In this document: piece after piece, positions 19,333-39,621 of the stretch | Layout of the letters: every line of letters starts with the position of its first letter | How positions within the stretch are numbered: position 1 is the first letter of the stretch | Source: Fervidobacterium changbaicum | Lineage (GTDB): Bacteria > Thermotogota > Thermotogae > Thermotogales > Fervidobacteriaceae | Reading direction: 5' to 3' | NCBI RefSeq assembly: GCF_004117075.1 | Contig: NZ_CP026721.1 | Coordinates: 1,054,001-1,118,000 of the forward strand | Length of the DNA stretch: 64,000 nt | Position numbers and translations under genes: made by a program | Notes under the pieces: model-generated | What the model was told of the DNA's origin: nothing | Databases searched by the model: none | What the model saw: only the letters and a program-made list of their open reading frames with translations

Positions 19333-22300
19333 ATTTCCATCCCTCATAGTCACTTCTAAAACCGAATTATTATTGAAGGCTATAACCAGGTCCTTATCCA
19401 GGTTTCCATCCCTCATAGTCACTTCTAAAACAGTTTTTAAAAGTTTTTATTGTCGATAACTCGGTGTTTCCATCCCTCATAGTCACTTCTAAAACATGTA
19501 TATTTAGATGAAGAACAAACGATGCTAACGAAAGGTTTCCATCCCTCATAGTCACTTCTAAAACAGGAGGTGATGCGTGATTACAACATCCCAGACACAA
19601 ACTTGTTTCCATCCCTCATAGTCACTTCTAAAACGAGTGGTATGGTGCGGAAGATTGTAACGGGAATTAAGGTTGGGTTTCCATCCCTCATAGTCACTTC
19701 TAAAACTTTCATACTGGGAAAATGAAGTCTCATACGGGGAAATCTGTTTCCATCCCTCATAGTCACTTCTAAAACTGTTTATGTTTTTGCGCAGAACGAC
19801 GAAGAGATTACTTTCTTTCCATCCCTCATAGTCACTTCTAAAACGAAGACAATGTTGTTCACTACGTCAATGAGTTGATTGAAGCTTTCCATCCCTCATA
19901 GTCACTTCTAAAACGTTATTAGTAAAAGTAATATTAGGCTTCTTGTCTACCGCTTTCCATCCCTCATAGTCACTTCTAAAACGGAAGAGCCAACGGACGC
20001 AATGCGGCTGGGTAAGTTGATGGCTTTCCATCCCTCATAGTCACTTCTAAAACTTAGATTATTTGTTCGACGAGTACAAACTCCTCGATTACGTCTTTCC
20101 ATCCCTCATAGTCACTTCTAAAACTGCATGGAATTGGATTGAAGGTTCCTCTGAACAAGCTACAACTTTCCATCCCTCATAGTCACTTCTAAAACTTTCT
20201 CCTGAAAAAGTTACAAAATTACTAGAATTTCTTAACTTTCCATCCCTCATAGTCACTTCTAAAACCTCCTTTTTTAAAATTTTTTGTTTTTCCCAGGCAA
20301 GGCTATCACTTTCCATCCCTCATAGTCACTTCTAAAACTTGTTGTTGTTCGTTTCCATAGAATCTTTGGTGCCTCGAACTTTCCATCCCTCATAGTCACT
20401 TCTAAAACCGACGAAAGTTTCATAGTAGTAAAACACGGTGACGATTGCTTTCCATCCCTCATAGTCACTTCTAAAACGCAGACTTTGAATTTGATTTTGA
20501 AAGCATTCGTAAATATGCTTTCCATCCCTCATAGTCACTTCTAAAACCTCAAAAGCAACTGAAACAGCAGAACTATTCATCAACTTTCCATCCCTCATAG
20601 TCACTTCTAAAACCAACGTATACACATGGTTCGAAGTAACATACGATTTGGAAGCTTTCCATCCCTCATAGTCACTTCTAAAACCTATTTTAAGGGGTCC
20701 AGCCGGGAGCGGGAAAACGTTCCTGGCTTTCCATCCCTCATAGTCACTTCTAAAACAATAAATACGGCATAATACATAACCCTCACCCCAGGGTACCTTT
20801 CCATCCCTCATAGTCACTTCTAAAACAAGTGTTCTATGAATTTCTCAACTTGTATGACAGTCTCACTTTCCATCCCTCATAGTCACTTCTAAAACTGGTA
20901 GAAAAAAAGATAATTTTAAGTTTAGGTTCTCTTGGGCTTTCCATCCCTCATAGTCACTTCTAAAACTTTCCAGGGCACTGTTCAGGTACTCGATGAGGAC
21001 GGCAACCTTTCCATCCCTCATAGTCACTTCTAAAACGGTTGTGTTTAAGTGTGCGGGAAAAGATGACTTTTTGGTATACTTTCCATCCCTCATAGTCACT
21101 TCTAAAACTGTAGTAAGTGTATTTGAATACCTCAAAAACAAATACGCTTTCCATCCCTCATAGTCACTTCTAAAACAGGTTTCAGAGTGACGGTTTAGGT
21201 TTAGTGGTTGTTTTCTTTCCATCCCTCATAGTCACTTCTAAAACATATACCACAAGGGTATTTGTTAGAGTGATATAAAACTTTCCATCCCTCATAGTCA
21301 CTTCTAAAACTTATTGCAGTGCCTGGGAATAAGATAATGCTTAAAACTTTCCATCCCTCATAGTCACTTCTAAAACAAAAAATTAATTGACTTGTGCACA
21401 GGTCAATCTGTCACATTTTTGCTTTCCATCCCTCATAGTCACTTCTAAAACATTTCGAATACGACGAGCAAGCTGTGGAGTACATGCTACAGCTTTCCAT
21501 CCCTCATAGTCACTTCTAAAACCAAGTTAGTACGTTACGGACAAATGTTACCGATTGAAACTATAGCTTTCCATCCCTCATAGTCACTTCTAAAACATAT
21601 AAGACGTCGCTCATGTTGTGGTATGAAAAACACTTTCCATCCCTCATAGTCACTTCTAAAACGTAGAGCTTAGGCAGTTGTTTAAGCCTAAGCGTTTGTT
21701 AACTTTCCATCCCTCATAGTCACTTCTAAAACGGATTTTGCTTTTTTTATTTTCCTTCTCTTGCTTTTACTTTCCATCCCTCATAGTCACTTCTAAAACG
21801 AGACAAAAATTTACATTAAAAGAGCTCGAAGACTTTCCATCCCTCATAGTCACTTCTAAAACAAATATAAGAACGGGAGGTGGTCGAATGGATTTAAGAC
21901 TTTCCATCCCTCATAGTCACTTCTAAAACGCTCACTCCTTCAAACAGCTTTGTACGCATATATGCTAGACTTTCCATCCCTCATAGTCACTTCTAAAACG
22001 GGGTAGTAGTAGGAGGTAGTAGAGGTAGTGGCAATACTAAACTTTCCATCCCTCATAGTCACTTCTAAAACGCAAATTTACAAATTTTAGGTACAGAGGT
22101 CTATATTACACTTTCCATCCCTCATAGTCACTTCTAAAACCAAAGTTCTATTGGTAAATCTTCTATGACTTACGTTATTTCTACTTTCCATCCCTCATAG
22201 TCACTTCTAAAACTATATTTGGGGGTGATAATTTTATTACAAATTGCAGGATATCTTTCCATCCCTCATAGTCACTTCTAAAACCAAAGTTCTATTGGTA

Positions 22301-23766
22301 AATCTTCTATGACTTACGTTATTTCTACTTTCCATCCCTCATAGTCACTTCTAAAACTATATTTGGGGGTGATAATTTTATTACAAATTGCAGGATATCT
22401 TTCCATCCCTCATAGTCACTTCTAAAACCAACGACAAAAGTTTTATAAGCGTGTGTTAGAGTATTTAGACTTTCCATCCCTCATAGTCACTTCTAAAACA
22501 CTTTAATTGAAAAAGTCAAGGAGTTCGGAGGGATTATTGTCCCTTTCCATCCCTCATAGTCACTTCTAAAACGTTCATCCACAATATGATTTTATTGTTG
22601 GCAAACTCGACTTTCCATCCCTCATAGTCACTTCTAAAACAAAATGCATGTAAGCGAGATACCCGTAAGAGCAAGAAGGCTTTCCATCCCTCATAGTCAC
22701 TTCTAAAACACAAAATACTTATCAGAAAGGGGTTGAAAGGTATGGTAAGGCCTTTCCATCCCTCATAGTCACTTCTAAAACAAAAGAGATGCGACCGCAC
22801 ATGCGGAATTGACAATAACACTTGCCTTTCCATCCCTCATAGTCACTTCTAAAACATTTTTGAGGGTGCAGGATGGGCAGATGCAGACACACTTTCCATC
22901 CCTCATAGTCACTTCTAAAACCGAGATACCCAAAACAGCGAGAAGGTTTTTCGTGATAGACGGCTTTCCATCCCTCATAGTCACTTCTAAAACTTTGTAG
23001 TTGCGCAGAAGATGAATAAAGGTATGGAAAAACTTTCCATCCCTCATAGTCACTTCTAAAACAAGTTTTTATTTTTTTTACACACGTAATACACGTAATA
23101 CATTTCCTTTCCATCCCTCATAGTCACTTCTAAAACGAAAATAGTCGAAGATTATTACCTCGAACCATATAGCCATCCTTTCCATCCCTCATAGTCACTT
23201 CTAAAACTTATTCAACAATCGTGTTGCTTACAATCCTAAACTTTCCATCCCTCATAGTCACTTCTAAAACAGAAAAAAAGACTTGACAAGAAAAAATACA
23301 CGTGATAAAACTTTCCATCCCTCATAGTCACTTCTAAAACCGTATTGATTTTGGGTCTCAGTTCTGAAGAAGTTGACAAAATCATCTTTCCATCCCTCAT
23401 AGTCACTTCTAAAACTATGCAAAAAGCGTTAATAAATCTGAATGTTAACAGTCCAACTTTCCATCCCTCATAGTCACTTCTAAAACTTTATAACGTGTAT
23501 TTTTTTATTCGTATATACGTATTACCTTTCCATCCCTCATAGTCACTTCTAAAACGGTATGGATAACAAAAACAAAGAGTGGCAGGATATCCTTGACTTT
23601 CCATCCCTCATAGTCACTTCTAAAACTCTCAGAGTTTGAGTATGTAGGTTGTTTGTCTTTTCACTTTCCATCCCTCATAGTCACTTCTAAAACTGTGCTT
23701 ATGGCGAGTGAAGTTAGCGCTCTTTCAAGACTTATCCTTTCCATCCCTCATAGTCACTTCTAAAAC
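19333..23766 (-). CRISPR. CRISPR array 1: 64 repeats of 30 bp
   Basis: I count 64 repeats and 63 spacers of about 36-46 bases. The plus-strand repeat begins NTTTCCATCCCTC and ends CACTTCTAAAAC. In crRNA sense (minus strand) it begins GTTTTAG and ends GATGGAAA plus a variable last base, so the leader is at the right (23767 onward) and the oldest spacers are on the left. The first plus-strand base is A in repeat 1, G in repeats 2-7 and C in repeats 8-64. A two-unit tandem duplication lies at 22141-22428. Short open frames here reading VTMRDG or SDYEGWK are only translations of the repeat. Confidence 0.99.
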
Positions 23767-24281: not shown

Positions 24282-25865
24282 TTAGGCGATTTCAAGGATC
24301 TTGCCAACAACGTAAGGATTCTTCCTCTGTTCGTCATAAGGTCTTTCGTCAAATGCAATGACCGACTTGATAGACTTTCCATATCGGATTCTATCTCTTA
24401 TTCTTTCTATAATATATGTCATAAAGGTTGTTCCACCAGTAATGTTGACGATTATCTCCCTTGCATTCTCAAGATAGTTTTCTGCTTTGGAGAGTATATC
24501 CCTTATTTCAGTAACACCGGAAAATGGATCCTTTATAATTATTGTTCTAACTTCGCCCCTAAACTCCGATTTTTCTACAATTTCATCGACTAACTTATTC
24601 CCTTCCTCTGAGGTAAGGATAACCAGTAGGTCTGCGTTGTAATTTTTCAGTACAGTGTACAAAGCTCCTTGAGTTGTACCAAGAGGAGTTAAGATAGCCT
24701 TCAGGTTTTTTTCTGGTGTGAACTCATTGAAGAATACATCTAAGTTGCCATTCTCAATCTTTTCAATCAAATCGTTAAGTGCAGCTCTGATCTTGTCGGG
24801 ACTTACGGGCAGGTTGTTAAAACCGAAATGAGCAAAGTGATTTCTTGCATCAAACAATACATTCGACTTCACCGGTAATGATTCTCTTTCACTAATATTC
24901 AAGAACTCGTCGTGTTTGCCCATTTTGTACAGAAGAACGTTCTTTATGTATTCACGAGCCAATCTTAGCGCCATACCGTAATCACCGGTTTGCACATAGA
25001 ATTTCACCAACTCCGCTTCTGACTTCAGTTCTTCTTCATTGAGAATCAGCGATTCATTTTCGATGTGGAAGGCTTTGTAACGTTCAACAAGTTTTTCAAA
25101 GAGTGGGGCGAAATGAGGAACAAATTCACTTACATCTCTTTTTAGCTTTTCGTCGCTAATGTCCTTGAAGAACTTACTTAAAGAATTACGGATAAGTTGG
25201 ATAGACCCAAGCCTTATAGATTCCGATACTTTTGTTAGGTCATCTGACAATATCCCCAGCTTTGTTGGTCTGTCTGCGTTCTTTTTGTGGTTGTTTTTAT
25301 AGTATTTTTCGTTCTGCTTTTTAATCAACTCTGACAACTGGGTTGCAAAACCGTAGTTTGTAAATAGTTTCGTTCCATATATCCAATCTATAGTCTCCGA
25401 CATTTCTGTAATATCAGTGCATCTTGTTGTTTTTATGTCACGATCGTACTTGCCGTATATTATTTTCACTTGAATTTGCTTTAGTTCTTTCAAATAAAGA
25501 GAAATAATTAGAGCCATCATTGGCAACATTCTAAAAGAGTGAGTTACGTCTAAGATAACCTCGTCACCATCCTGTACGCGAGGTATTATCTTCTTAACAA
25601 AATCAGCGACTTTTTCATCTTCGGAAATGTCAACTATTTTGACGCTAATACCGCGTGATTCGCAAAATTCTTTAACTTGCTCTTTTTGGAAGGTTTCATA
25701 AGCTCCTCGAGTTAGAAAGAATATCACTTCAAGGTCTTTGCCCTGCGATTTAAAAAACTCAACCAAAGCAAGCGGAAAAATCTTTTGCTTTGTCCTAAAG
25801 TCATCTATGAATACTTCACTCTCCTGGTAAGAGCCCGTGCCAAGGAAGGTTAGAAGTTTCGTCAT
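24282..25865 (-). CDS. Csx1/Csx2 (TM1812)-type CARF-HEPN protein with an extra C-terminal CARF-like domain
   Basis: 527 residues. The N-terminal CARF domain (about 1-160) has LGTGSY and the hallmark DVTHSFRMLP (106-115) of the TM1812/Csx2 family. A helical middle carries RNHFAH (R341, H346), an R-x4-H HEPN ribonuclease motif. Residues 388-527 form what looks like a second CARF domain: LTPLGTTQGAL, LLVILTSEEG, and NITGGTTFM (474-482). Ordinary family members of about 350-400 residues end after the HEPN part. Expected to be activated by cyclic oligoadenylate from Cas10 and to cut RNA. Start ATG 25865 follows GGGAGG. It lies downstream of the CalpT-like gene. The family is clear; the second CARF assignment is my inference. 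Confidence 0.85.
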   Translation of the reverse strand: MTKLLTFLGTGSYQESEVFIDDFRTKQKIFPLALVEFFKSQGKDLEVIFFLTRGAYETFQKEQVKEFCESRGISVKIVDISEDEKVADFVKKIIPRVQDGDEVILDVTHSFRMLPMMALIISLYLKELKQIQVKIIYGKYDRDIKTTRCTDITEMSETIDWIYGTKLFTNYGFATQLSELIKKQNEKYYKNNHKKNADRPTKLGILSDDLTKVSESIRLGSIQLIRNSLSKFFKDISDEKLKRDVSEFVPHFAPLFEKLVERYKAFHIENESLILNEEELKSEAELVKFYVQTGDYGMALRLAREYIKNVLLYKMGKHDEFLNISERESLPVKSNVLFDARNHFAHFGFNNLPVSPDKIRAALNDLIEKIENGNLDVFFNEFTPEKNLKAILTPLGTTQGALYTVLKNYNADLLVILTSEEGNKLVDEIVEKSEFRGEVRTIIIKDPFSGVTEIRDILSKAENYLENAREIIVNITGGTTFMTYIIERIRDRIRYGKSIKSVIAFDERPYDEQRKNPYVVGKILEIA

Positions 25866-26112
25866 TTAAAATCCTCCCTCTGCAGTTTTCTGAGCCCGTA
25901 TTCGTACAAGACTGAGATCTGGAAAGAGTAGGTAATTAACACAGCAAAGCAAGTATGAATAAAGACGGCTTATCACATCGCTGTAATGGGCAACAGTGTG
26001 GGTAAGATATTATTTTTTTAATATGCCTATGCTACTTCAAAATGTGGAAGAATATATTCAAGGTCACATCACCAGCTTTTAGGTTTGAACAGCGACAAGA
26101 AAAAGAATACTA

Positions 26113-26892
26113 TTAAGCGTCTTCAATTTGTAACCTGAGTTTTTGCTTGAATGTTTCAGCCGGTACTTCAAAACCTATCTTAAATTTGATTTCTTGTGGA
26201 ATTCTTCCTGAAAATATTAATTTATCTTGAATATATATATTGGCTTGCTTTCCGATTAATACATCGGAAAAGTATACAATAACAGCATCGTCCAAAACTT
26301 CGATTAGCAAGCCTTCTTCCCTTGTCTTTGATGTTGAGGCAGCAGCTTTTTGCGGGAACAACTCTCTTAGCTCATCTCCTCCGAATTTTTCGGATAGATC
26401 GATTATTACCTCCTCTGCTTGGTCTTCTTCAACTTTTGACAAATATTCTAAAAATTTTTCATAGAAGATCTCTATTCTCAATGCTTCGAAGTCATAAAAT
26501 TCTTTCCAAACACCTTGATATCCTCTGCTGGCTTTATTTTCATAGCTTTCTTTGACTTTTGCTAATTCATCTTTAGGTAAGTTCATGACAACCTCACAAT
26601 ACTTTATCATCTCAGGTGTAAGATACAATGCTATTGGCGTTACCTTTAAAGCAGAGACTAAGTGATCCACTCGTAGCTCATGCCCGTCTCCTGCTAAAAT
26701 TAGTTCCGGAGTCAAGTATACAGCTTTGTAAACTTCTCCAATGTCTTCAACAACGACTCCGTACACGAGGTCTTCGCCGTAGATGCAAAAGACGTCGCCA
26801 ATCTTTAATTTTTCAGTCCCCTGGTCTATCAATACTTCCACTTTCCTTGAGTGTGCTTTATAATCCTTCAGTATTCTCTTCAAATATTCCAT
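26113..26892 (-). CDS. CalpT-like protein (putative protease-cleaved anti-sigma partner)
   Basis: 259 residues, about 30 kDa. An N-terminal beta-rich part (KIGDVFCIYGEDLVYGVVV, about 20-90) leads to a helical middle, an Ala/Ser/Thr linker QKAAASTSKT (181-190) and a C-terminal beta domain (195-259). This layout matches the described CalpT: an N-terminal 23-kDa part holding the sigma factor and a 10-kDa C-terminal part, separated by a site cut by the Lon-SAVED protease CalpL. It directly follows the sigma-factor gene, and a CalpL homologue is encoded at 38092. The C-terminal domain aligns without gaps to the separate 79-residue protein at 29030. Start follows GGAGGGAATG. CalpT identity rests on context and architecture; no sequence search was possible. 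Confidence 0.6.
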   Translation of the reverse strand: MEYLKRILKDYKAHSRKVEVLIDQGTEKLKIGDVFCIYGEDLVYGVVVEDIGEVYKAVYLTPELILAGDGHELRVDHLVSALKVTPIALYLTPEMIKYCEVVMNLPKDELAKVKESYENKASRGYQGVWKEFYDFEALRIEIFYEKFLEYLSKVEEDQAEEVIIDLSEKFGGDELRELFPQKAAASTSKTREEGLLIEVLDDAVIVYFSDVLIGKQANIYIQDKLIFSGRIPQEIKFKIGFEVPAETFKQKLRLQIEDA

Positions 26893-26952: not shown

Positions 26953-27654
26953 TTACTTATAACGCATTTTGTCGCAGATTTTTGACTTGTACATTTTTAG
27001 TACCATCATAATCACGCAGTCTGAAACATCGACTACTTCAGTGAAAAATTTTTTAATTCTCTCTCTTATCCTTTGATGTGCTTTGTACTTTGCATCCGCA
27101 CTGGGATATTCTCTAAAATCAGTGTCCTTCTCATATTTGGTATATATAAAATCACATAAATCGGCTTCCTTATTTACAAACTCATTTTTAAAAGTTTCAT
27201 AGATGGCTTCTGCTATTAGCTCGTCGTAAGGACTATAACAATCGCTTGGTTCAACAGAAATTATCTCACCGAATTCCAAATTGTTGTGGTCATCTGACTG
27301 TGAAGATGTTATTTCTCTGTTTAAAGACTCAGCATCTTGTTTTGTACGTCTCACATCTTCTATTCTGCTCATCACGATTTTACTAAAATAACTAACAATT
27401 GCTTCAACACTTGCTTTCATCAGTTTCTCTTTTTTGTTGAGAAAGGAGATCGCCGATTCTTGAAAAATATCGTCAACAAGCTCTTCGAGGGTGCCTCTAC
27501 CAAGTAGGGAGTATCTCCCCTTGGTTCTCACTATAATCATACCTGAGATAAACTGATTAATGGTCTTTCTGCAGTCTTCTGACAAATCACCGCTGATCAG
27601 TAATTTTTTCAAACATTCTCCCAATTTAGAATCACTTTTTGTCAAAGCAGTCAT
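26953..27654 (-). CDS. ECF-like sigma-70 family factor of the CRISPR locus (CalpS-like)
   Basis: About 233 residues. Residues 55-110 match sigma region 2: LEELVDDIFQESAISFLNK, then VSYFSKIVMSRIEDVRR, with the helix-rich core and basic end seen in ECF factors. The C-terminal part ends with KAHQRIRERIKKFF, like the recognition helix end of region 4, though the helix-turn-helix is weak. It probably redirects RNA polymerase to defence promoters once released from the CalpT-like protein. Start ATG 27654 has GGAG eight bases upstream and overlaps the preceding gene by 23 bases, so translation is probably coupled. Alternative: a divergent regulator that only resembles region 2. Confidence 0.6.
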   Translation of the reverse strand: MTALTKSDSKLGECLKKLLISGDLSEDCRKTINQFISGMIIVRTKGRYSLLGRGTLEELVDDIFQESAISFLNKKEKLMKASVEAIVSYFSKIVMSRIEDVRRTKQDAESLNREITSSQSDDHNNLEFGEIISVEPSDCYSPYDELIAEAIYETFKNEFVNKEADLCDFIYTKYEKDTDFREYPSADAKYKAHQRIRERIKKFFTEVVDVSDCVIMMVLKMYKSKICDKMRYK

Positions 27655-28045
27655 TTTCCTCACTCCAATTTCCTAGGTCAATTGTACAGGAAGCTACAAA
27701 TTCTATTTTCTTTTGCCCTCTCCACTTTTCAATAATTGTCGATGGGATGTCGAAGATGTACTTATCACCGAATCGCATAAAATAGCTGTCCTTTGCTATA
27801 AAAAATCCAGATACCAGAGGACAACATTCGAATATCTTGAATCTTAACTTTGAATAACCCTTTGTAGAGAGAAAGGCTACCAAGTACCGGTATCCGTCAA
27901 TCTGTACCACACCTGGTCTTGTTGTCCTCTCACCTTCTTTTGACTTGTAAAGGTCTGGTTTATTTAAAAAGCTTGCGGCAGTTCTCTTAATATCGTGGAA
28001 AATGACTAGCTGCGATTTGAAATTGTATTTTTCGAGTTTTTTCAT
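27632..28045 (-). CDS. Small beta-rich protein, possibly PemK/MazF-like
   Basis: About 137 residues from ATG 28045 (a GTG at 28057 is also possible; neither has a strong ribosome site). The segment TTRPGVVQIDGYRYLVAFL, then STKGYSKLRFKIF and FMRFGDKYIFDIP, has the strand order and RPGVV signature of the PemK/MazF SH3-like barrel. The described CalpT is a MazF homologue, so this protein could be an additional or alternative sigma partner. It overlaps the sigma gene and is the first gene of that operon, with a TGCTATAAT box at 28214-28222. Not firmly identified. Confidence 0.5.
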   Translation of the reverse strand: MKKLEKYNFKSQLVIFHDIKRTAASFLNKPDLYKSKEGERTTRPGVVQIDGYRYLVAFLSTKGYSKLRFKIFECCPLVSGFFIAKDSYFMRFGDKYIFDIPSTIIEKWRGQKKIEFVASCTIDLGNWSEENDCFDKK

Positions 28046-28213
28046 GGGCTTTGGCACCCAGTAAACACTGTGGTATTTTATGTTCTGTGTGCCTTTCCTC
28101 CCTTCACTGAATGTCTAGATTATTTCGATCAAAGGTTGTTTTTCATTGATATTATAACAAATAAAAGTTGAAAACATGCAGCATTTTATGAATATGAATA
28201 ATGTTCAAGTATT

Positions 28214-29680: not shown

Positions 29681-30421
29681 TTATACAATTTCTCTATCAA
29701 CAAGTTCTATGCATCCAAATCCTGCGGAGTTTTTGGAACCCAAACCCGCGTCATATGCTAATTTAACGATTTCCCAGTCACCAGTGATATCAAGCACTGT
29801 AATCCATGCATCAAGTTTTAATTCCTTGTAGGAGACAATAACTTTCTTCGGATTAGGTGCTATGTTTTTTACCCGTATGTCTCCTTCGAAAGGAACACCG
29901 TACGCGGCGTAATATTTCCTTTTAAGGTTGTCCTCCAGAAGTTTTTCAAAATCTTCATCGTTTGGTGAATGATAGAGCGTGTACCTTTTTCCATCTTTCC
30001 CAATTGTTGAATAAACAGTTATTGGTGATTTGGTATTCACTCTGATATGATTGGTCCTCGGAAGGTCAAATACTTGAATTTTTGTTGGCACAACCTTATT
30101 TCTTCCGATATTCAGTGTTTCAAATCTCCCGATCCTTTCAATAACGAAATCCACAAGTTTGTCATCTGCGGTAGAAAGTATCAAAACAACATTATCCTTA
30201 AATTTGATGACTTTCTTGTTAGAGTCTATTTCGAATCTTCCCAGAAGCCTTGAGAAACTGAAAAGTTTGTACTGTCTTTTACCATAGCTGTAGCCTCTAT
30301 CATGTAAGAACTTTCTGTACTCGTCATCGTTGATAAGATTGTATATAAGACCTTGAAGTATGTGATTGTAATCTGTTGGAAGTTCTATTGTTTTGCAACT
30401 AAGAGTGATGTAGACTCTCAA
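29681..30421 (-). CDS. cas6: CRISPR pre-crRNA endoribonuclease Cas6
   Basis: 246 residues. The C-terminal glycine-rich loop GLGSKNSAGFGCIEL is the Cas6 signature, and the N-terminal RRM-like fold begins MRVYITL. It cuts the repeat RNA to leave the eight-base handle ending the repeat (ATGGAAAN). The start is TTG at 30421 overlapping the upstream TGA, with GGGGGG seven bases before it. Last gene of the csm operon, which ends just before the MITE-like element. Confidence 0.92.
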   Translation of the reverse strand: MRVYITLSCKTIELPTDYNHILQGLIYNLINDDEYRKFLHDRGYSYGKRQYKLFSFSRLLGRFEIDSNKKVIKFKDNVVLILSTADDKLVDFVIERIGRFETLNIGRNKVVPTKIQVFDLPRTNHIRVNTKSPITVYSTIGKDGKRYTLYHSPNDEDFEKLLEDNLKRKYYAAYGVPFEGDIRVKNIAPNPKKVIVSYKELKLDAWITVLDITGDWEIVKLAYDAGLGSKNSAGFGCIELVDREIV

Positions 30422-31038
30422 AATCTATTCCCCCCTAATTTATCAGCTAATATTAACACGTTCTTTAAATCTTCTTCCTCATATACGAAATAATTGGTAC
30501 TACCTATCCTAAGACCTACTGTATTAACAAGCTGAATCATCTCTTTTGAACCAAAGAGTTTCAGTCTGTACACGTTCTTCCTAAACGAAGTTATGACTGG
30601 AATCAGAGAAAGTTCTTCGCTTTTGTCTTTAAAAAGCTGTTCGGCTAGGCTGAAATAGTATTTTTCGAAATTGGCTTGTAGCTCGTCTATATTGCTTTCA
30701 CCAAGTTGTTCATCTACCAATATGAAACCTTGATCGAAAGGTTCAACAACTTCAATGGTTGTGTAATAAGGGAAAACACCACCAAGAGGAACTCTCAGAA
30801 GTTTCCTCAAGGTGGTTCCGGAAAGGGTATCCCAAACTCGCAATTTAAATATTGCAGTACCTGACATATAATATCCGTTCTCGCTCAAATAAATCCTACG
30901 CCCAAGAATTCCAGAAAACGAGTAGAAGTATCCTACACCGTCACCAAAAATTTGCTCAAATAAGCCCCGTGTTAGCTCGTTCGTAACTAAAACAGGCGCC
31001 TGTAATTTCCACTTTAGAGTAATTTCCTGCAAGTTCAA
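30418..31038 (-). CDS. Unidentified protein inside the csm operon
   Basis: 206 residues, start TTG near 31038 (or TTG 31032, better spaced from GGGG). It is tightly placed between csm5 and cas6 and overlaps cas6 by four bases. It begins with alternating strands (ITLKWKLQAPVLVTNELTRGLFEQIFGDG), has VPLGGVFPYYTTIEVVEPFDQGF in the middle and a mixed alpha/beta end (RIGSTNYFVYEEEDLK). The strand pattern and position suggest a divergent RAMP-like or Cas6-related fold, but I see no glycine-rich RAMP loop. Not a standard Csm subunit. Confidence 0.75.
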   Translation of the reverse strand: MNLQEITLKWKLQAPVLVTNELTRGLFEQIFGDGVGYFYSFSGILGRRIYLSENGYYMSGTAIFKLRVWDTLSGTTLRKLLRVPLGGVFPYYTTIEVVEPFDQGFILVDEQLGESNIDELQANFEKYYFSLAEQLFKDKSEELSLIPVITSFRKNVYRLKLFGSKEMIQLVNTVGLRIGSTNYFVYEEEDLKNVLILADKLGGNRF

Positions 31039-31055: not shown

Positions 31056-32210
31056 TTAATCCATAAGTTCAACTTTAACCCAGCCAAGTGGCATTATGTC
31101 ATTTGGTGATTCAGATAACTTAACTATCCTGGTAGTTATCGGGAAATTACTTTCCGTAATTTTGCGATATCCAAAGTTCTTCAACACTTTGATTTCAGCT
31201 GGTTCTAAGAAACCTCTAAAGGCTGTTTTTGAGTAGAAAGACGTGTGTCCGCCTATCCTGACCAAGAAACCCCTATCCGCTTTCTCGTTAATGTCGAGGA
31301 GTTTTTTATAGAATTCTTCAAGTGTTTTCTTGACAGGGTTATCTGACATTGTGCTTATTTTCTGCCGTTCCATGTTTATGATAATCATAGCTGATTCTTT
31401 CATTCTATCAACAAATACCTTCTCGTTAGAAAAAAGGTTTCTGAAATAGCCAAGAGCTTCCTTAAGTTTTTCATTTCTCCTAACTTCTTCCAAACTCTCT
31501 AATTTGCTCAAGTTTGAAAATAGAGAAATTATTTCTGCAGCTACTTTATTTCCTTCGTTGCTCCTCATATCAGGAAGCCACACTTCGACAAACTGAGGTA
31601 TACTTGTTTTTTGTCTTACAAAGTGAACAACTTCAACCTTCTTGAATTTTATGTGTGAATTGTTGATAAAAGTACTGTCCGTTATTCTAAGAAGTTTGAA
31701 TGGCGAATAGAACGGTTGCCCAAAGATATTTTGTTCGACTTTTTCAACCTCAAATTTTACATTTGGAGATCTGAAAACATTTCTAAGTGTAGCTTCGAAT
31801 TTTTGATTGGATTTAATAATCATCGTCCTTAAAGCACCTTTGAGCGAACTGCCTGGTATATAGTACCTGCCGGCTGTTCTTATAAATCTACTTATTTGCA
31901 AAGTTTTCGGTTTGCCGTTTTTATCAAAGATTGTATCAAACGAAGTATAGCTGTACTCTTGCAAGTCAATCTTGAGTACTTCAAATATCTTCAAAAGAAC
32001 TGCATCTTTAGTTTCTGGATTAAAAATTTTGTCACTGTTGGCCACAAAATAGTCCACGAATTTTTCGTGTTCCATTAGTTTGTCAAAATTTAGAATATGC
32101 GTCTTCTTTCCTTGAACGATAGTTTCGAACTTACCAATCTTTTCTCCAGAACCTATAAATACAGCTGAAACTGGTTCAATCGATATCCTTTTACTAAAAT
32201 CTGCTGTCAC
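31056..32210 (-). CDS. csm5: Type III-A CRISPR RAMP protein Csm5
   Basis: 384 residues. Csm5 caps the 3' end of the crRNA in the Csm complex. RAMP features: IEPVSAVFIGSGEKIG at the N-terminus, and YYIPGSSLKGALRTMII, the conserved RAMP block shared with Csm3. The C-terminal half has RIGGHTSFYSKTAFRG. The GTG start at 32210 overlaps the csm4 stop (GTGA) with GGAGGGAG upstream, so it is translationally coupled. Confidence 0.9.
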   Translation of the reverse strand: MTADFSKRISIEPVSAVFIGSGEKIGKFETIVQGKKTHILNFDKLMEHEKFVDYFVANSDKIFNPETKDAVLLKIFEVLKIDLQEYSYTSFDTIFDKNGKPKTLQISRFIRTAGRYYIPGSSLKGALRTMIIKSNQKFEATLRNVFRSPNVKFEVEKVEQNIFGQPFYSPFKLLRITDSTFINNSHIKFKKVEVVHFVRQKTSIPQFVEVWLPDMRSNEGNKVAAEIISLFSNLSKLESLEEVRRNEKLKEALGYFRNLFSNEKVFVDRMKESAMIIINMERQKISTMSDNPVKKTLEEFYKKLLDINEKADRGFLVRIGGHTSFYSKTAFRGFLEPAEIKVLKNFGYRKITESNFPITTRIVKLSESPNDIMPLGWVKVELMD

Positions 32211-33190
32211 GGCTGACTCCCTCCTTTGAATGGGAGCAAGAATGCCTTTCCGTATCTGTATACTTTGTAATTATTTTCCTCTTCGAATCCTTCGGGTGAT
32301 ATGTCTAAAATCCTCCCATCCACACGCTTATTGAAAACTGAGCCTTCTGTGAACATTATAACGCGTTTGGCTTTTTTATCGCTATTGTGTATATAACCGG
32401 TTCTATACATTAGTTCGTATGACTTTATAACTTCCTTAGCAAGCTCGGATGTGCTCTCTTTGTAATCTTCAGGACTTGGGATGTATGGTGAAAGCAAAAG
32501 GTATCTGTCACCTTCCTTAGGTAGTTCAATTGGTTGGATTTCGTAATCGAAATGACCAAATCCGTACGTCCTGTCGCCACCAATGCCCTCGTCTGCCAAA
32601 AGTCTTAGCGCTGCAAGTATTTGTTTCTCAATTTCTTGACCAACGGACAGGTAGAACCAAAGCCCGCAGTTAGGTGCGAAGTGGACTTCTGAAAAGTAAT
32701 AGAGGTTTGAGCTTGAATTCAAACGATTAATCATGACCCTCGGTCTCTCAATAACAATCGCTGGGCTGTTGAACTCGCCTTGGTATTCTATCTTCTTCTT
32801 GCTCAAAAATTGGCCGTGTACGTCGTCTACATTAGCCTTAGCACTCCCAAAAACTATTTCTTCCTGCACATACTTCACTTTCTTTAATTTCTTTGGTTGG
32901 GTTAATCTTGGCAATAAGCCGAAGTCCTCACCTTTTGGCCTGGGCAAAAAGTAAGTATCTCCAATATAGTAAAAAGCAGAGGAAAAACGAAGGTCAGTCT
33001 TTTCAGAATTAGTCATTAATTTTTTTATGAGCTCTTCCGTTTCTCGCTCACCGAACAATTTTGAATGCGCATTCATCAACGCACCGAAAATTGTTTCGGC
33101 ATGGATTATAATATCTGAAACTTCACTTACGCCGTCCATAAGACCAATATGAAGTGGACCTTTGAATTTAATTTTTATCCGATAGTCCAT
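32207..33190 (-). CDS. csm4: Type III-A CRISPR RAMP protein Csm4
   Basis: About 327 residues. Csm4 holds the 5' handle of the crRNA and contacts Cas10. The N-terminal RAMP strand IKIKFKGPLHIGL is followed by AETIFGALMNA, and the C-terminal glycine-rich loop by GGDRTYGFGHFD. I favour ATG 33190 over the GTG at 33199. It lies between csm3 and csm5 in the standard order. Confidence 0.9.
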   Translation of the reverse strand: MDYRIKIKFKGPLHIGLMDGVSEVSDIIIHAETIFGALMNAHSKLFGERETEELIKKLMTNSEKTDLRFSSAFYYIGDTYFLPRPKGEDFGLLPRLTQPKKLKKVKYVQEEIVFGSAKANVDDVHGQFLSKKKIEYQGEFNSPAIVIERPRVMINRLNSSSNLYYFSEVHFAPNCGLWFYLSVGQEIEKQILAALRLLADEGIGGDRTYGFGHFDYEIQPIELPKEGDRYLLLSPYIPSPEDYKESTSELAKEVIKSYELMYRTGYIHNSDKKAKRVIMFTEGSVFNKRVDGRILDISPEGFEEENNYKVYRYGKAFLLPFKGGSQP

Positions 33191-33240
33191 GCGCCTCACT
33201 TCCCTAAGATAGGATAGCTATTCCATTGAGTTCCTTTAAA

Positions 33241-33969
33241 CTACTTGAGCTTAGACAGCGCTTCTTCTACGTTTCCAAATGTACTTACTGGACTCTCATC
33301 TTTACCCTCCGAATAAAATGTCTTTTCGCGCTTGACAATCTGAATGTTTCTAAATGCAATTTTTCCATATCCCCTTGAACCACTACCGCCCAGATAGTCG
33401 TCTTCTAAAAGTTTCATTGCCAAAAACAGTTCCATTAAGAACTTTTTTTCATCGCCTTCATATTCGTCGACTACGAATTCCGCTTTGAATATAGCACCTG
33501 CTGGAACCCTTTCTTGAGGTCTTGGGTTAGCTCTCGATGTTACTCTATTTATACTATTTTCATGCTTAACTTCGGTGTACTTTGTTTCAAGAAAGTCTGC
33601 ATATGGTTCTAAACTCTTCTCATCAAGGTAAGCATCGCGAACGATGAGCCGTGTCCTCGAGAACGTACTAATGTTGGATTTGTTATCAACAGATGTTCCG
33701 AAAAGTCCGCAAACAGGACAGTTCTCATCCGCACACTTGTGAACATCGCCTTTTTCGTGAACTTTTCCGTGATAAAATTCGCTCAGAACTCTCATTTTCC
33801 CCTTTAAACTGCTGCCTGGAATGTATGGTCTGCCCTTTGGGTCCTTAATGACTGGGTTATCAAGTCCACCTATTTCGAGACTGTCCTTGTTCGTACCAAT
33901 GTGTAACCCAGTGATAACCTCAATATCGGCTTTGACTATGTACTTTCCCAAAAATTTCTTTACTCCCAT
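33241..33969 (-). CDS. csm3: Type III-A CRISPR RAMP protein Csm3 (target-RNA nuclease subunit)
   Basis: 242 residues. Backbone subunit that cuts target RNA every six bases. The catalytic aspartate is D37 in GGLDNPVIKD, equivalent to the known Csm3 position. YIPGSSLKGKMR is the RAMP signature and GSGSRGYGKI the glycine-rich loop. A zinc-like set CADENCPVCG lies near residue 80. Start ATG follows GGGGGAT. The intact aspartate predicts active RNA cleavage. Confidence 0.95.
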   Translation of the reverse strand: MGVKKFLGKYIVKADIEVITGLHIGTNKDSLEIGGLDNPVIKDPKGRPYIPGSSLKGKMRVLSEFYHGKVHEKGDVHKCADENCPVCGLFGTSVDNKSNISTFSRTRLIVRDAYLDEKSLEPYADFLETKYTEVKHENSINRVTSRANPRPQERVPAGAIFKAEFVVDEYEGDEKKFLMELFLAMKLLEDDYLGGSGSRGYGKIAFRNIQIVKREKTFYSEGKDESPVSTFGNVEEALSKLK

Positions 33970-34013
33970 ATTCGTATCCCCCTTTACATTGTTGTTCTTT
34001 TATCGCACTTTTA

Positions 34014-34499
34014 TCATCTTTCCTGGTACTTTTCATAGTACTTATGGAACGCAGTAAGAGATTCGAAGAAGTCCATGAAAAGGTAAAAAGATTTCTTAAT
34101 CTCCTGTCCCTGTTTTTTCTTAATGCTTTCAACAATGTTCCTCATACCTTTAGCAAATTCTTCGAGAACTTCGTTATTTCCGGATTCTCTACCAACGTCA
34201 TATACCATCATAGCAACGAACTTGTTAAGCTCTCTCTTGAGAATTCTTTCAATTTCCGTATCGCTCTTACCTGCAATGTCAATTTTCTTGACGTGGTTAT
34301 AGAACTTTCTCAATTTTGTTGAATTCAGCTTCAAGTTCTTTGCTATTTGTTCAGCCTTTTCAGTCAAGGTGTTGTAGTCTTCGTTCATAGATTCTATGAG
34401 TTTCTTTACATCTCCAAAATATTTGGCCATCTCAGGGGTTTGGTTCCTTACCTGGTTGTTACCTCTGTTCTGATAGCTGTTTGGCTGTCCTACGCTCAT
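34014..34499 (-). CDS. csm2: Type III-A CRISPR small subunit Csm2
   Basis: About 161 residues, helical and basic, with the family pattern NSTKLRKFYNHVKKI. A Gln/Asn-rich N-terminal tail (GQPNSYQNRGNNQVRNQ) precedes the helical core. It lines the crRNA-target duplex. ATG 34499 is supported by GGAGGTG at seven bases and leaves one base after the cas10 stop. Confidence 0.88.
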   Translation of the reverse strand: MSVGQPNSYQNRGNNQVRNQTPEMAKYFGDVKKLIESMNEDYNTLTEKAEQIAKNLKLNSTKLRKFYNHVKKIDIAGKSDTEIERILKRELNKFVAMMVYDVGRESGNNEVLEEFAKGMRNIVESIKKKQGQEIKKSFYLFMDFFESLTAFHKYYEKYQER

Positions 34500-34500
34500 T

Positions 34501-36990
34501 TTACGACACCTCCACTTCACTTAGTAATTCATCTTCCTTTTCTATACTTCGAGTTTCATCATGAACCCATCTAACGATCAACCCTAACTTTGGATGCAAT
34601 CTGTTTCTTGAAACAAGGATTGAATTAAATAGTTTATCCATGTCCTCGATAACTTCTTTCTGCCTCTCCATAAGTCTTCCAATGTAGTAGTACAGCCGCC
34701 AAATTTTCAGTTCTTTATCATCTTTATCTGCGAATGTGTCAAGTACGTGTAATAAGTTCCTGCTCACACCCTTGGTAATTAGCTCTTTTAACTTTTCCTT
34801 GATTTCAAGAACCTTGTCGAACTCTTCCCAGCCTATACACCCCCTTAGGAAGTAAATAGCATCCTTTTCTCTACCATTGCGTTTATAAGCTTTTGCGTAC
34901 TCGTCGAGTAACTCTCCAGCAGTTGTACCAAGCTTGTAAACTGGGTATTTCCTGCTTGGTGCAATTGCTACAGCCATCGATATCGAAAGATTTTTGTTCT
35001 TAGTAAACTTCTCAAACTCTTTTCTTATACCACTACCAAGCATCGGCAGCTCGTTCCACGGTCCGAGTATCATGAAATCGTCGCCACCAGAGTATATAAC
35101 GTTGCAGTTTTGGTAGTTGTTTCTAACGTACTTCTCTAATGCAACGCTGAAGAACATCTCGAGTTCTGAAGATAACGTTGTAACATATGATATAGGTGCT
35201 CTTCTGTTTTCTAAATTGACACTGCTTTTTAGAGCCTTAAATATACTTCCAAGATTGTCTACATCGCCGCGAAGTATTGCCCAGCGTTTTACGCCTTCCG
35301 ATTGCTTAGCTATCGTTTCAAGGTCAGCGGTAACTTCTCTTCCATTTTTTTCGATATATTTTCTCGGAACGTAGCTAGCTATCTTTACATAATACATAGC
35401 TTCCATTGGGTCATATGTACCGTTCCTGCTCTTTTCAACCGCGTAAGACAGTTTGTTTGGTTCATTTTCGAACGAAAGTTCAAATCCGAAGTTTTTGAAT
35501 ACGTCAAATACATCCTGTGGCTTGCGATTTAACTCGGGAATTTGCTCAATCACTAAGAACTTGCTGTTCGCCAAATGGTATCCTAAATCGACGAAAGATT
35601 CACAAAATGTACATTCGTACTCTACTTCTTCACCAGCTTTGCCATACCTTCTTTCCTCCATCTTTCGTCCACAATACGGACATCTTGGCCCTGAGAAATC
35701 TTCTGGAACGAACATTTCTACATTCAGTATGTTTGCAAATTTTCTGTTCTTCTTTTCTTCAATAAGTCTCGCAAGATCATCATGTACGTCAAAATTGACA
35801 AGCCTTGAAAGGTTGATTTTCATACCGGCAAGAAGTACTGACAAATCTAATCCAAAGGCGTCGTACATTTTCTTGTCAAGTAAAGTTTGGTACTCTTCCA
35901 ACTTATCAATGGTCTTGGCAGGAACAAGAAGATAAAAGTGTCCCCCCCCGCAGTAGAGAATGTTTGAGTTGTAGAGACCTTCTTTTCTGATGATGTATTT
36001 TGCTATTATTTCAGCAAGGTAGGCTATAAAGAACGAACGAGCTCTTAATTTCTTAAGTCCGTTTTTGACGGAAGTTTTGTATATGAAGTCTTGTATACCA
36101 GATATATCACCCTTTATCACACCAAATAGATCTTCATCGTCTTTAAGTGAAACTTGATTATCCTGCAACTTTCTGACTATCTCCTCTAACTTCCCAAGTC
36201 TGCTCGAAGCAAATATAAACCTATCGTTTTGTTTCTCAAATATTCCTTCGCCAAGTTGAATCAACAAAGCTACAGCTATAGCAGCTGTTGAAGCTGCATG
36301 GGAGAATAGGGAAATATCGGGCTCACTGTAATAAAACGCAGAGGGAACTGTGGATGTAAATTCTTTGAGTAAATAATAAACTCTTTCAAGAACACCGTCC
36401 GGTTCTTTATTCCAAAGTTCTTTTAGAGCGCTATCTTTTATCAAAGGCTCGAACTCTTTCCATAAAGATTCATACTCCTTTTTTACCATTCTTTCCAAAA
36501 GCTCACTCTCTGATCTTACCTCTTCGGCCAATGAAAAACGCGAAAGTGGTCTGTAAAAGTTGACTTTGTCATCAACACCCAACACAGATACTTTGGAGAT
36601 TATAGATTTCATATACTTAATCCTATCTAAGTCGGTGTTTTGGCTGTAATCCATCCGTTCATTTGCAGACAGTTTATCTGCCAAAGACACTATTTTTGCC
36701 AGGATTTCGTGTTCATTCGCAAGATTTTCCAGTCTTTCATGGTGCTTACTAATAATGATTGAAACATCATCGCGATAAGGCAAAGAAGAGTTCTTGTAAA
36801 TATGTGCACCGATATACTGATGTGCAAGACCAGAATTGTTGTTCTTTATCTCATAGCTGTATTCTCTCTTTATCTCTTCTTCCAAGGTGTTGCCCATTTC
36901 CCCCCTTTGTCGGAACTTACCTACATCGTGGAACAAAGCCGATAAATAAGTCACGTCTCTCCACTTCTTAAACACATCGGTTCCTGACAT
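34501..36990 (-). CDS. cas10: Type III-A CRISPR large subunit Cas10/Csm1
   Basis: 829 residues. The N-terminal HD nuclease motif HDVGKF (H21, D22) is intact, for single-stranded DNA cutting. A zinc ribbon CPYCGRKMEE ... CTFC lies in the middle, and the cyclase palm has YSGGDDF with GGDD at 635-638. The intact GGDD predicts synthesis of cyclic oligoadenylate on target binding, which fits the CARF and SAVED effectors encoded nearby. Start ATG follows GGGGGTGG. Operon order is cas1-cas10-csm2-csm3-csm4-csm5-unknown-cas6. Confidence 0.96.
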   Translation of the reverse strand: MSGTDVFKKWRDVTYLSALFHDVGKFRQRGEMGNTLEEEIKREYSYEIKNNNSGLAHQYIGAHIYKNSSLPYRDDVSIIISKHHERLENLANEHEILAKIVSLADKLSANERMDYSQNTDLDRIKYMKSIISKVSVLGVDDKVNFYRPLSRFSLAEEVRSESELLERMVKKEYESLWKEFEPLIKDSALKELWNKEPDGVLERVYYLLKEFTSTVPSAFYYSEPDISLFSHAASTAAIAVALLIQLGEGIFEKQNDRFIFASSRLGKLEEIVRKLQDNQVSLKDDEDLFGVIKGDISGIQDFIYKTSVKNGLKKLRARSFFIAYLAEIIAKYIIRKEGLYNSNILYCGGGHFYLLVPAKTIDKLEEYQTLLDKKMYDAFGLDLSVLLAGMKINLSRLVNFDVHDDLARLIEEKKNRKFANILNVEMFVPEDFSGPRCPYCGRKMEERRYGKAGEEVEYECTFCESFVDLGYHLANSKFLVIEQIPELNRKPQDVFDVFKNFGFELSFENEPNKLSYAVEKSRNGTYDPMEAMYYVKIASYVPRKYIEKNGREVTADLETIAKQSEGVKRWAILRGDVDNLGSIFKALKSSVNLENRRAPISYVTTLSSELEMFFSVALEKYVRNNYQNCNVIYSGGDDFMILGPWNELPMLGSGIRKEFEKFTKNKNLSISMAVAIAPSRKYPVYKLGTTAGELLDEYAKAYKRNGREKDAIYFLRGCIGWEEFDKVLEIKEKLKELITKGVSRNLLHVLDTFADKDDKELKIWRLYYYIGRLMERQKEVIEDMDKLFNSILVSRNRLHPKLGLIVRWVHDETRSIEKEDELLSEVEVS

Positions 36991-38091: not shown

Positions 38092-39621
38092 TCATTCCAA
38101 ATTAGGTGACAAAAATACATTCGGCATTTCAAAAACAGGAACATAGGTAGCTGATTTTTTATTGTAATTGTATATTTTGCCCGGGATATAATCCCCAAGA
38201 GCCATGCCAAAACCAAAAGCTATCGGAACAGGACAGCTCAAAAATATGTGCAGTTCCTTATATTTGTCTCGCATTATCTGTGTAATAGAGAAAAGTTCGG
38301 AAATATAATTAGACCAATCTCCTATCGGGATGTTTCCAGAATTGCCAGGGGATGTAGTAGTGACGCGAATGATGAAAGCATCCGGAAGGTGGGTTTTTGC
38401 AAATTCAACAATCTGCGGGAACGGTTTGTGAGAAGCCAAATCGACTAAAAAGATTGCTTTCCTCTTGTTTGGGGCGTAATCGTAAACATCTACGGAAAGT
38501 AGTCTTAGGTCTTCCAAAGATTTACACGACTTTATCAATCTGAGCTTTTCCGGTGTTGTTAGATCTAATACAAGATGGTAACCACCTTGATAGTGGTAGA
38601 CAGCTATCCTATCTTTTGCCCCAACAGCTATACCCAAACCCAAAGCAAAAGTAGCGGGACCCTTTATAGCAAGATGTGGAACACCAAAATTCTGTATAAC
38701 ATTCCTCAAAACATTATAGACGTTCCTTATGTGTTTACTGAATTCGTTCTCATCCAGTTCTCTGTGTGAGTAAACAAATTCCATTCCGAAAATCTTCTCG
38801 TGCAGCTTTAAGTTCGGGAATGTCTTGAAGTGCTTAGCAACTTCTTCATTGAGAGAAGACCACTGTCTTCTAACATCTTCTTTCTGAGGTGAGAAACTTA
38901 CGTAAACCGGTATATTGAATTCTTTAGTATTGAAGAAATCAACTATTTCGTAAACGCTTGAGACATCCAGAGGGGTTATAAGTACAAGTCCAATCTCTTC
39001 GCAATATTTAGTCTTTTCAAAAATATTGTCAACTTGAAGAACTCTACCACCACCGCCTACTTTACCAGTAAATGCGATATTTGAAGGTATCTCATCCACA
39101 AGACTTGCAACTGCCACAGCGAACTGAAAAGATTCGCCGCAAAATTCTTTATCAAAAATGACAGAAATCTTGTGCTGAGCGATTTCCTCAACGTTATACA
39201 AGAAACTTGAAACATTCGGATTGTTCGTAAAGGAGAAATCTGCATTTTCGACCATGAAAACAAGCGCTCTTACCAAATCAACACGTTCCCTCTCAACTAC
39301 CGGAAACCTCGTCTCTACAAATTTCGAGTTAACTAAAGCAAGCGCCTGATCTTTTGTGAGAGTGCTTTTGAATTCTCTCGACAACATTTGCATTGCGTGA
39401 TCTGTGTAGCCGTTTATCAGAAAAAACTTAAGAACTTCGTAAAATATTACTGAATAGTTTGAAATCTCTTTGTCTAAACGAGAGAAATCTGCCAACACTT
39501 CTCCAGGAGTTATAAACCCAGACTGAACGAATTCAATGTACTTCCTTAAATCTTTCCTCAACAATGTAACGAAACTCACAGTTATCATCTCCCACAAGTT
39601 GGGCAATGATACAATAAACAT
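38092..39621 (-). CDS. CRISPR-associated Lon protease with SAVED sensor (CalpL-like)
   Basis: 509 residues. An N-terminal helical part precedes a Lon-type protease domain: GESFQFAVAVASL (catalytic S164), NIAFTGKVGGGGRVLQV and FEKTK (catalytic K203), the Ser-Lys spacing of Lon. From about residue 285 to the end is a SAVED domain: GPATFALGLGIAVG, RKAIFLVDLASHKP and CPVPIAFGFGMALGDYIPGK. This is the CalpL layout, a protease switched on by cyclic tetra-adenylate that cuts CalpT and frees the sigma factor CalpS. The ATG 39621 has no ribosome site; a GTG at 39579 follows GGGAG and may be the true start. It is first in the cas1-cas10-csm operon, 10 kb from its likely partners. Confidence 0.85.
   Translation of the reverse strand: MFIVSLPNLWEMITVSFVTLLRKDLRKYIEFVQSGFITPGEVLADFSRLDKEISNYSVIFYEVLKFFLINGYTDHAMQMLSREFKSTLTKDQALALVNSKFVETRFPVVERERVDLVRALVFMVENADFSFTNNPNVSSFLYNVEEIAQHKISVIFDKEFCGESFQFAVAVASLVDEIPSNIAFTGKVGGGGRVLQVDNIFEKTKYCEEIGLVLITPLDVSSVYEIVDFFNTKEFNIPVYVSFSPQKEDVRRQWSSLNEEVAKHFKTFPNLKLHEKIFGMEFVYSHRELDENEFSKHIRNVYNVLRNVIQNFGVPHLAIKGPATFALGLGIAVGAKDRIAVYHYQGGYHLVLDLTTPEKLRLIKSCKSLEDLRLLSVDVYDYAPNKRKAIFLVDLASHKPFPQIVEFAKTHLPDAFIIRVTTTSPGNSGNIPIGDWSNYISELFSITQIMRDKYKELHIFLSCPVPIAFGFGMALGDYIPGKIYNYNKKSATYVPVFEMPNVFLSPNLE

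What the first reader, a model, noticed from the sequence alone, without database searches (positions are those of the whole stretch)
24282..25865. CARF-HEPN-CARF fusion: a type III effector with two ligand-sensing domains
The N-terminal CARF (DVTHSFRMLP) and HEPN (R341-x4-H346) parts are those of TM1812/Csx2 proteins, but 140 further residues form what looks like another CARF domain (LTPLGTTQGAL, LLVILTSEEG, NITGGTTFM). Two sensors around one ribonuclease could allow asymmetric ligand binding, ring-nuclease self-shutoff, or response to two oligoadenylate sizes.
Basis: partly seen in the sequence, partly recalled or inferred. Interest (0 to 1): 0.75.

Follow-up and report, generated by a model that had tools for sequence, protein, structure and literature searches.

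The report
CRISPR RNase carrying its own off-switch?
This is a bacterial CRISPR-linked RNA-cutting enzyme with a second messenger-binding domain at its tail; the tail also occurs as a small separate protein and on another enzyme, which suggests a built-in off-switch, although the overall architecture is already catalogued.

Summary
Confirmed. The minus-strand gene 24282-25865 encodes 527 aa: an N-terminal TM1812-type CARF, a HEPN RNase (R341-x4-H346) and a C-terminal CARF (about 386-527). The tail's model (pLDDT 90.5) matches solved CARF proteins first (Can2 Z 14.9, TtCsm6 14.1, Crn1 about 12.5). The architecture is not new: PADLOC-DB has it as 'CARF2--CARF_HEPN_CARF' (E 3.5e-203). The useful result concerns the tail: in Thermotogota the same domain also exists as a free 140-aa protein beside cas1/cas2 and behind a different effector (CARF-CYTH-HD). 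The nearest solved relative of residues 1-380 is the Csx1 part of Marinitoga Csx1-Crn2, whose C-terminal module is a proven ring nuclease. Best explanation (0.55): a self-limiting RNase whose N-terminal CARF senses cyclic oligoadenylate and whose C-terminal CARF degrades it. Against: the motif-II lysine of known CARF ring nucleases is Ser/Thr in all 21 tails aligned, and motif I is mostly lost outside Thermotogota. Nothing was assayed. A second sensor or messenger sink remains possible; response to two messenger sizes is unlikely.

The parts
24282..25865 (-). Gene for the CARF-HEPN-CARF protein, 527 aa plus stop
   Evidence: PADLOC PDLC01838 1-526, E 3.5e-203
25873..25878 (-). Shine-Dalgarno-like GGGAGG, 7 bases before the ATG
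   Evidence: read directly
25407..25865 (-). N-terminal CARF (residues 1-153), TM1812 type, DVTHSFR 106-112
   Evidence: TIGR02221 and DxTHG; VIA Z 18.3 to the CARF of Marinitoga Csx1-Crn2, 8y75, 158 aligned, rmsd 2.4
24726..25406 (-). Helical linker and HEPN domain (residues 154-380)
   Evidence: model residues 1-380 span 8y7g 3-440, Z 18.2 but rmsd 14.4 over 345 residues (hinged); low model confidence here
24828..24845 (-). HEPN motif R341-x4-H346
24285..24710 (-). C-terminal CARF (residues 386-527)
24672..24680 (-). Motif I, G396-T397-T398, after strand 1
   Evidence: the VIA range starts place it on G-T-S of TtCsm6 (58-60) and Sso2081 (9-11) if strand 1 has no gap
24426..24440 (-). Motif II, T476-G-G-T-T480, after strand 4; T480 stands where Can2 and Card1 have Lys
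24315..24350 (-). D506-x-R508-x4-Q513-x3-P517, invariant in the family
   Evidence: invariant in 16 of 16 rows of A4
34501..36990 (-). Cas10/Csm1 with HD and GGDD, presumed source of the messenger
   Evidence: PADLOC and Pfam; GGDD at 635
38092..39621 (-). SAVED-Lon protein (CalpL-like), co-effector in the locus
   Evidence: PDLC02009 E 2.6e-152; Pfam SAVED

Best explanation
It is a Csx1-type, cOA-activated RNase with a built-in off-switch. When the type III-A complex of the locus sees foreign RNA, Cas10 makes cyclic oligoadenylate, most likely cA4. Binding in the dimeric N-terminal CARF activates the HEPN site, which cuts RNA. The C-terminal CARF, a cassette added behind the HEPN domain, binds the same messenger and cleaves it, so that the RNase burst is short and scales with messenger supply, as in Csx1-Crn2. 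Shown here: domain order, CARF fold of the tail, intact HEPN and Cas10 motifs, type III context, occurrence of the tail alone and on another effector. Inferred: messenger size, ring-nuclease activity, its catalytic residues, dimerisation, and the timing effect.
For: (1) The tail is a mobile module: of 19 Thermotogota genomes holding it, 10 have it behind CARF-HEPN (one interrupted), 1 has broken remains of that protein, 2 have it as a free 140-aa protein next to cas2-cas1, 4 have it behind a CARF-CYTH-HD effector, 1 has it split from such an effector by one stop codon, and 1 has a fragment. (2) The split and fused forms go with the same effector: in L031 the free domain and an HD effector (32% identity to residues 62-886 of the fused protein) are separate genes of one same-strand cluster. 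(3) The closest solved relative of residues 1-380 is the Csx1 part of Csx1-Crn2, whose C-terminal module is a proven cA4 ring nuclease (PMC7293037). PADLOC's other named CARF2-HEPN fusions carry Csx3, Csx16 or Csx20, families with ring-nuclease activity in PMC12409355. (4) The motif-I position reads GT[TS] in 14 of 15 Thermotogota rows; PMC10018336 gives GTS as the signature of degrading CARFs. (5) No match to the Crn1-type, Crn2, Csx3 or Csx16 models in the window's genome, with the control limits told below.
Against: Motif II has Ser/Thr in place of Lys in all 21 rows; the Lys is essential for cA4 binding in TtCsm6 (K137A, PMC10897365). Of the 6 homologues outside Thermotogota only 1 keeps GT[TS]. 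Fold similarity does not discriminate: Can2, which does not degrade cA4 (PMC10018336), scores highest. No assay exists. Csx3 and Csx16 searches rang in no control genome, so those absences are weak; Csx20 was not searched.
Confidence: 0.55

Rival explanations
1. The C-terminal CARF binds messenger without cutting it: a second sensor that tunes HEPN activation, or a sink that sets an activation threshold.
For: Motif-II Lys is missing in 21 of 21 rows, and the best structural match, Can2, is a non-degrading sensor. Strongly conserved residues fit binding as well as cleavage.
Against: A free-standing 140-aa form with no effector domain has no obvious output as a sensor, although a sink would fit. 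In the fusions I read about (Csx1-Crn2, PMC7293037; Crn4 on Csm6-2 and TIR-SAVED, PMC12830947) the added C-terminal module belongs to a ring-nuclease family.
Confidence: 0.3
2. The two CARFs respond to different oligoadenylate sizes (for example cA4 and cA6), so the RNase integrates two signals.
For: The two CARFs belong to different CARF groups: TM1812/CARF2 at the N-terminus, nearest to CARF1, CARF4 and Card1 models at the C-terminus.
Against: The locus has a CalpL-like gene; CalpL is described as cA4-activated, and mixing of signals within a locus as very rare (PMC11229360, passages).
Confidence: 0.07
3. The tail has lost ligand binding and serves only dimerisation or stability.
For: Loss of the motif-II Lys in 21 of 21 rows.
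Against: It is the best conserved of the three parts in 7 of 7 intact Thermotogota comparisons, with polar residues D506, R508 and Q513 invariant.
Confidence: 0.08

Closest known systems
PADLOC-DB CARF2--CARF_HEPN_CARF (PDLC01838, PDLC01839, PDLC01840)
   Same: Same three-part architecture; PDLC01838 matches 1-526, E 3.5e-203, and the model also rings in Thermotoga maritima.
   Different: Nothing essential; this is a member. The models do not say what the second CARF does.
Csx1-Crn2 of Marinitoga (PMC7293037; structures 8y6z, 8y75, 8y7g)
   Same: Nearest solved relative of the Csx1 part; a C-terminal cOA-binding module follows at the same place.
   Different: Its module is Crn2 (DUF1874, active-site His495); here it is a CARF domain and Pfam finds no DUF1874.
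Crn1 ring nucleases (Sso2081, Sis0455)
   Same: CARF fold, Z 12.3-12.6; motif-I position G-T-T against G-T-S.
   Different: Motif II is TGGTT instead of GRK; a D-x-R-x4-Q-x3-P motif is invariant here.
TtCsm6, self-limiting CARF-HEPN RNase (PMC10897365)
   Same: Couples sensing, RNase and messenger cleavage; Z 14.1 for the C-terminal CARF.
   Different: One CARF does both jobs there; here there are two CARFs of different groups.
Csm6-2 (PMC11229360)
   Same: Two CARFs in one chain.
   Different: CARF-HEPN-CARF-HEPN, described as arising from a duplicated Csm6; here no second HEPN follows.
CARF7--CARF_CYTH_HD (PDLC01929)
   Same: In Kosmotogaceae these carry the same C-terminal CARF.
   Different: Different sensor and effector; the 706-position model matches 226-889 of 1050 residues and leaves the tail out.

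Membership tests
CARF domain superfamily (residues 386-527) | Rossmann-like CARF fold | tested here: met
   pLDDT 90.5; Can2 Z 14.9 (rmsd 2.3, 128 aligned), TtCsm6 Z 14.1
CARF domain superfamily (residues 386-527) | Recognised by CARF sequence models | tested here: met
   PF23400 4.7e-6 above cut-off in the whole protein (24.3 bits, just under the cut-off of 24.6, for the tail alone)
PADLOC CARF2--CARF_HEPN_CARF | Full-length profile match across all three parts | tested here: met
   PDLC01838: protein 1-526 on model 1-521 of 522, E 3.5e-203
Csx1 | N-terminal CARF plus HEPN with R-x4-6-H | tested here: met
Csx1 | cA4-activated dimeric RNase | not testable with these tools
   needs assay
Crn1-type CARF ring nuclease | Motif I GTS | tested here: inconclusive
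   GTT in the window; GT[TS] in 14 of 15 Thermotogota rows and 1 of 6 others
Crn1-type CARF ring nuclease | Motif II with basic residue (GRK in Sso2081, K137 in TtCsm6) | tested here: not met
   GGT[TS] in 21 of 21 rows; aligned to GGTK of Can2 8bao
Crn1-type CARF ring nuclease | Cleaves cA4 | not testable with these tools
   needs assay
Csx1-Crn2 | C-terminal DUF1874 (PF08960) | tested here: not met
   Pfam scan at E up to 1 lists only CARF-type and chance models for the tail
Csm6-2 | Second HEPN after the second CARF | tested here: not met
   ORF ends at the last strand of the C-terminal CARF

The most novel reading that the evidence does not exclude
The C-terminal CARF is the founding domain of an uncharacterised ring-nuclease family: a CARF enzyme that has given up the motif-II lysine and uses an invariant D-x-R-x4-Q-x3-P element after strand 5. 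It exists free-standing in type III loci and as a plug-in off-switch on at least two unrelated effectors, Csx1 RNases and CARF-CYTH-HD enzymes.
Probability: 0.4. Interest if true: 0.6.

Novelty: new member of a known kind. Interest (0 to 1): 0.42.

Why it matters
Most type III CRISPR systems seem to need an off-switch for their toxic effectors, and Hoikkala et al. (PMC12409355, parts 1-3 of 5 read) expect further ring-nuclease families and propose to look in loci that lack a known one. This tail domain is a concrete candidate: small, thermophilic, found alone and on two effectors, so that one domain can be assayed in three settings. If it cleaves cOA without the motif-II lysine, the sequence rule now used to tell degrading from non-degrading CARFs would need revision.

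Tried and rejected
Two messenger sizes: rejected as the main reading because of the CalpL-like co-effector and the reported rarity of mixed signals. Internal duplication (Csm6-2 style): rejected, since the N-CARF carries the TM1812/CARF2 signature and the C-CARF falls with CARF1, CARF4 and Card1 models, and no second HEPN follows. Filing it as Crn1: rejected, motif II not met. Phage-borne copies as anti-CRISPRs: none found in viral contigs (two peptide patterns), in phage records by tblastn or, by fold, in BFVD at E 0.001; plasmids likewise none, searched with a different family member. These searches are limited and do not exclude them. Single-sequence search of the PDB gave only chance hits for the full protein; profile searches found Can2 8bao, not the Csx1-Crn2 structures, which appeared only by fold. 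The genome-contig scan with the whole protein found nothing; with the domain alignment it found 5 loci from 83 pattern matches. A first tree is void: I had picked neighbouring ORFs in place of most of the distant homologues; one search replaces it.

Rows left out of the tree (21 rows, 20 different): G068 (near-identical to G070), G090 (interrupted), G071 (fragment), G077 (broken). The A4 alignment (16 rows) further leaves out near-copies.

Full report
Observation. The minus-strand ORF 24282-25865 gives 527 aa from an ATG with GGGAGG 7 bases upstream. The N-terminal part matches TIGR02221 (TM1812) and the DxTHG domain. The C-terminal part matches Pfam CARF_Card1. The whole protein matches PADLOC-DB 'CARF2--CARF_HEPN_CARF' over residues 1-526, E 3.5e-203. 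The genome is one contig of 2,266,349 bases; a same-genus genome (G071) corresponds to a record titled Fervidobacterium sp., so the window is very probably from Fervidobacterium.

Fold of the tail. A five-row alignment of the tail gave an AlphaFold2 model with mean pLDDT 90.5. Foldseek against the PDB puts Csm6, Cam1, Crn1 and Can2 first. In the VIA second look the leading rows are CARF proteins: Can2 8q44 Z 14.9 (rmsd 2.3, 128 aligned), TtCsm6 5fsh Z 14.1, Card1 12.9, Sis0455 12.6, Sso2081 12.3. The full-length model is weaker (pLDDT 72.8, pTM 0.39), but its first 158 residues match the CARF of Marinitoga Csx1-Crn2 at Z 18.3 with 28% identity, and residues 1-380 span 3-440 of the intact fusion (Z 18.2; rmsd 14.4, so the domains are hinged differently).

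Context. The gene lies in a type III-A locus on the same strand: Cas10 with HD and GGDD, Cas1, two Cas2 (one on the other strand), Cas6. The Csm2-Csm5 labels for 31056-34520 are mine, by eye and gene order, not from a model. Copies of one repeat flank it: 64 at 19334-23738 and 46 at 40042-43284. The locus also has a SAVED-Lon gene (PDLC02009, E 2.6e-152) and a CRISPR-T match at 26113-26892 (E 4.2e-25).

Distribution. Searching 103 Thermotogota genomes with the whole protein gave matches in 26. The tail domain is present in 19 of them: 10 behind CARF-HEPN (G090's copy is interrupted), broken remains of such a gene in G077, free-standing 140 aa in G039 and G042, behind a CARF-CYTH-HD effector in G020, G025, G030 and G033, separated from such an effector by one stop in G027, and a fragment in G071. 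Of 390 genomes drawn across the domain, 21 matched, the same 19 plus 2 outside the phylum; 5 of 397 genomes in the class of one of those (G237, itself among the 5) had it and 1 of 5 in the class of the other (G334 itself). All 6 distant cases are CARF-HEPN-CARF or, for L074, whose frame starts inside the protein, HEPN-CARF. HEPN R-x4-H is kept in 13 of the 14 rows; G091 has Arg for the His.

The tail as a cassette. In L031 (G039) the free domain follows cas2-cas1-cas2 on the same strand, with an 804-aa CYTH-CARF-HD protein further upstream; that protein is 32% identical to residues 62-886 of the fused 1050-aa protein of G033. So the same pair is split in one family and fused in another. In Thermotoga-type loci the CARF-HEPN-CARF gene sits between cas6 and cas10 (L042, L043, L044, L047), and in L041 beside CalpL, cas1 and cas10. 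The tree separates three groups: distant CARF-HEPN-CARF (100/99), Thermotogota CARF-HEPN-CARF (89/90) and HD-or-free (85/75), so the module has been attached to two kinds of effector; direction and number of events are not resolved.

Residues. Invariant in all 16 rows of A4, in window numbering: G396, G400, S419, G450, E453, G477, G478, T479, D506, R508, Q513, P517. Range starts place G396-T397-T398 on G-T-S of TtCsm6 (58-60) and Sso2081 (9-11), if no gap lies in the first strand. The lysine of motif II (K137 in TtCsm6, K106 in Sso2081, GGTK in Can2) is Thr or Ser here in 21 of 21 rows (aligned to 8bao). By the same kind of range arithmetic, counted from the C-terminal end, D506 falls near N164 of TtCsm6, a residue with a major role in cA4 cleavage (PMC10897365, passages); this is a rough guide only.

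Known ring nucleases in the same genomes. PF08960 (Crn2) matched 1 of 26 genomes (G039). PF09651 (Crn1 and CARF7) matched 13 of 26, in open frames of 302-1064 aa, and none in the window's genome or in the Fervidobacterium- and Thermotoga-type genomes G068-G071 and G090-G093. PF09620 (Csx3) and PF09652 (Csx16) matched 0 of 26, but no control genome rang, so those two absences are weak. Csx20 was not searched.

Reading. The tail is not a Crn1 by the motif-II test. It nevertheless behaves like a ring-nuclease cassette: small, free-standing in type III loci, and added C-terminally to two effectors. By PADLOC's model names the same CARF2-HEPN chassis also carries Csx3, Csx16 and Csx20, and in Marinitoga it carries Crn2 (PMC7293037, parts 1 and 3 of 5 read). 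I therefore favour messenger cleavage (0.55), with binding without cleavage as the main rival (0.30).

Literature. Read: PMC12409355 (parts 1-3 of 5, and passages), PMC7293037 (parts 1 and 3), passages of PMC12669027, PMC11229360, PMC10910872, PMC12830947, PMC10018336, PMC9704534, PMC4012209 and PMC10897365. PMC4012209 (2014) already lists 'fusion of two CARF domains'. The 2020 CARF classification (gkaa635) is not held; I recall that it defines the CARF2 group and predicts ring nucleases from fusions, and it may discuss this one. Searches showed no paper, in titles, abstracts or the passages read, on the function of this second CARF, its free-standing form, or its fusion to CARF-CYTH-HD; PMC10910872 names CYTH, HD and CARF in one figure legend. 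This does not prove absence in print.

Verdict. Real and correctly described; architecture already catalogued; function of the tail open and testable.

Noticed in passing
window 38092-39621, 26113-26892, 26953-27663, 27632-28057: A probable CalpL-CalpT-CalpS cascade: SAVED-Lon (PDLC02009), CRISPR-T match, and two ORFs (one sigma-like by eye, no convincing model hit) that are conserved in G068 and G070.
   Followed up: partly
window 30418-31038 and 29681-30421: Two neighbouring Cas6-type genes: 29681-30421 matches Cas6b (1.6e-69) and the 206-aa ORF next to it matches another Cas6 model, PDLC01556 (3.4e-58).
   Followed up: no
L033 2128-6129 (G020), L036 6103-9993 (G027): Near the CARF-CYTH-HD-CARF genes lies a single-chain protein with RNA polymerase beta and beta-prime domains (Pfam Rpb2_6, Rpb1_2, Rpb1_5 for the L033 protein; the L036 protein by eye) and an RtcR-like AAA regulator; possibly the 'RNAPol + CARF' system named in PMC10910872.
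   Followed up: partly
L042 (G091), L047 (G090), L080 (G077), L038 (G071): Decaying copies: HEPN His replaced by Arg, an interrupted frame, a broken gene and a tail-only fragment.
   Followed up: no
window 19334-23738 and 40042-43284: 110 copies of one 24-base repeat core in one orientation (64 and 46) flank the cas locus.
   Followed up: no
L046 224-2131 and 9106-10740 (G002): A CARF-HD effector without the tail (PDLC01929, 2.3e-61; Pfam PF09651 1.1e-16 and HD-CE) and a CARF-HEPN-CARF gene on one contig; one tail might serve both effectors.
   Followed up: no
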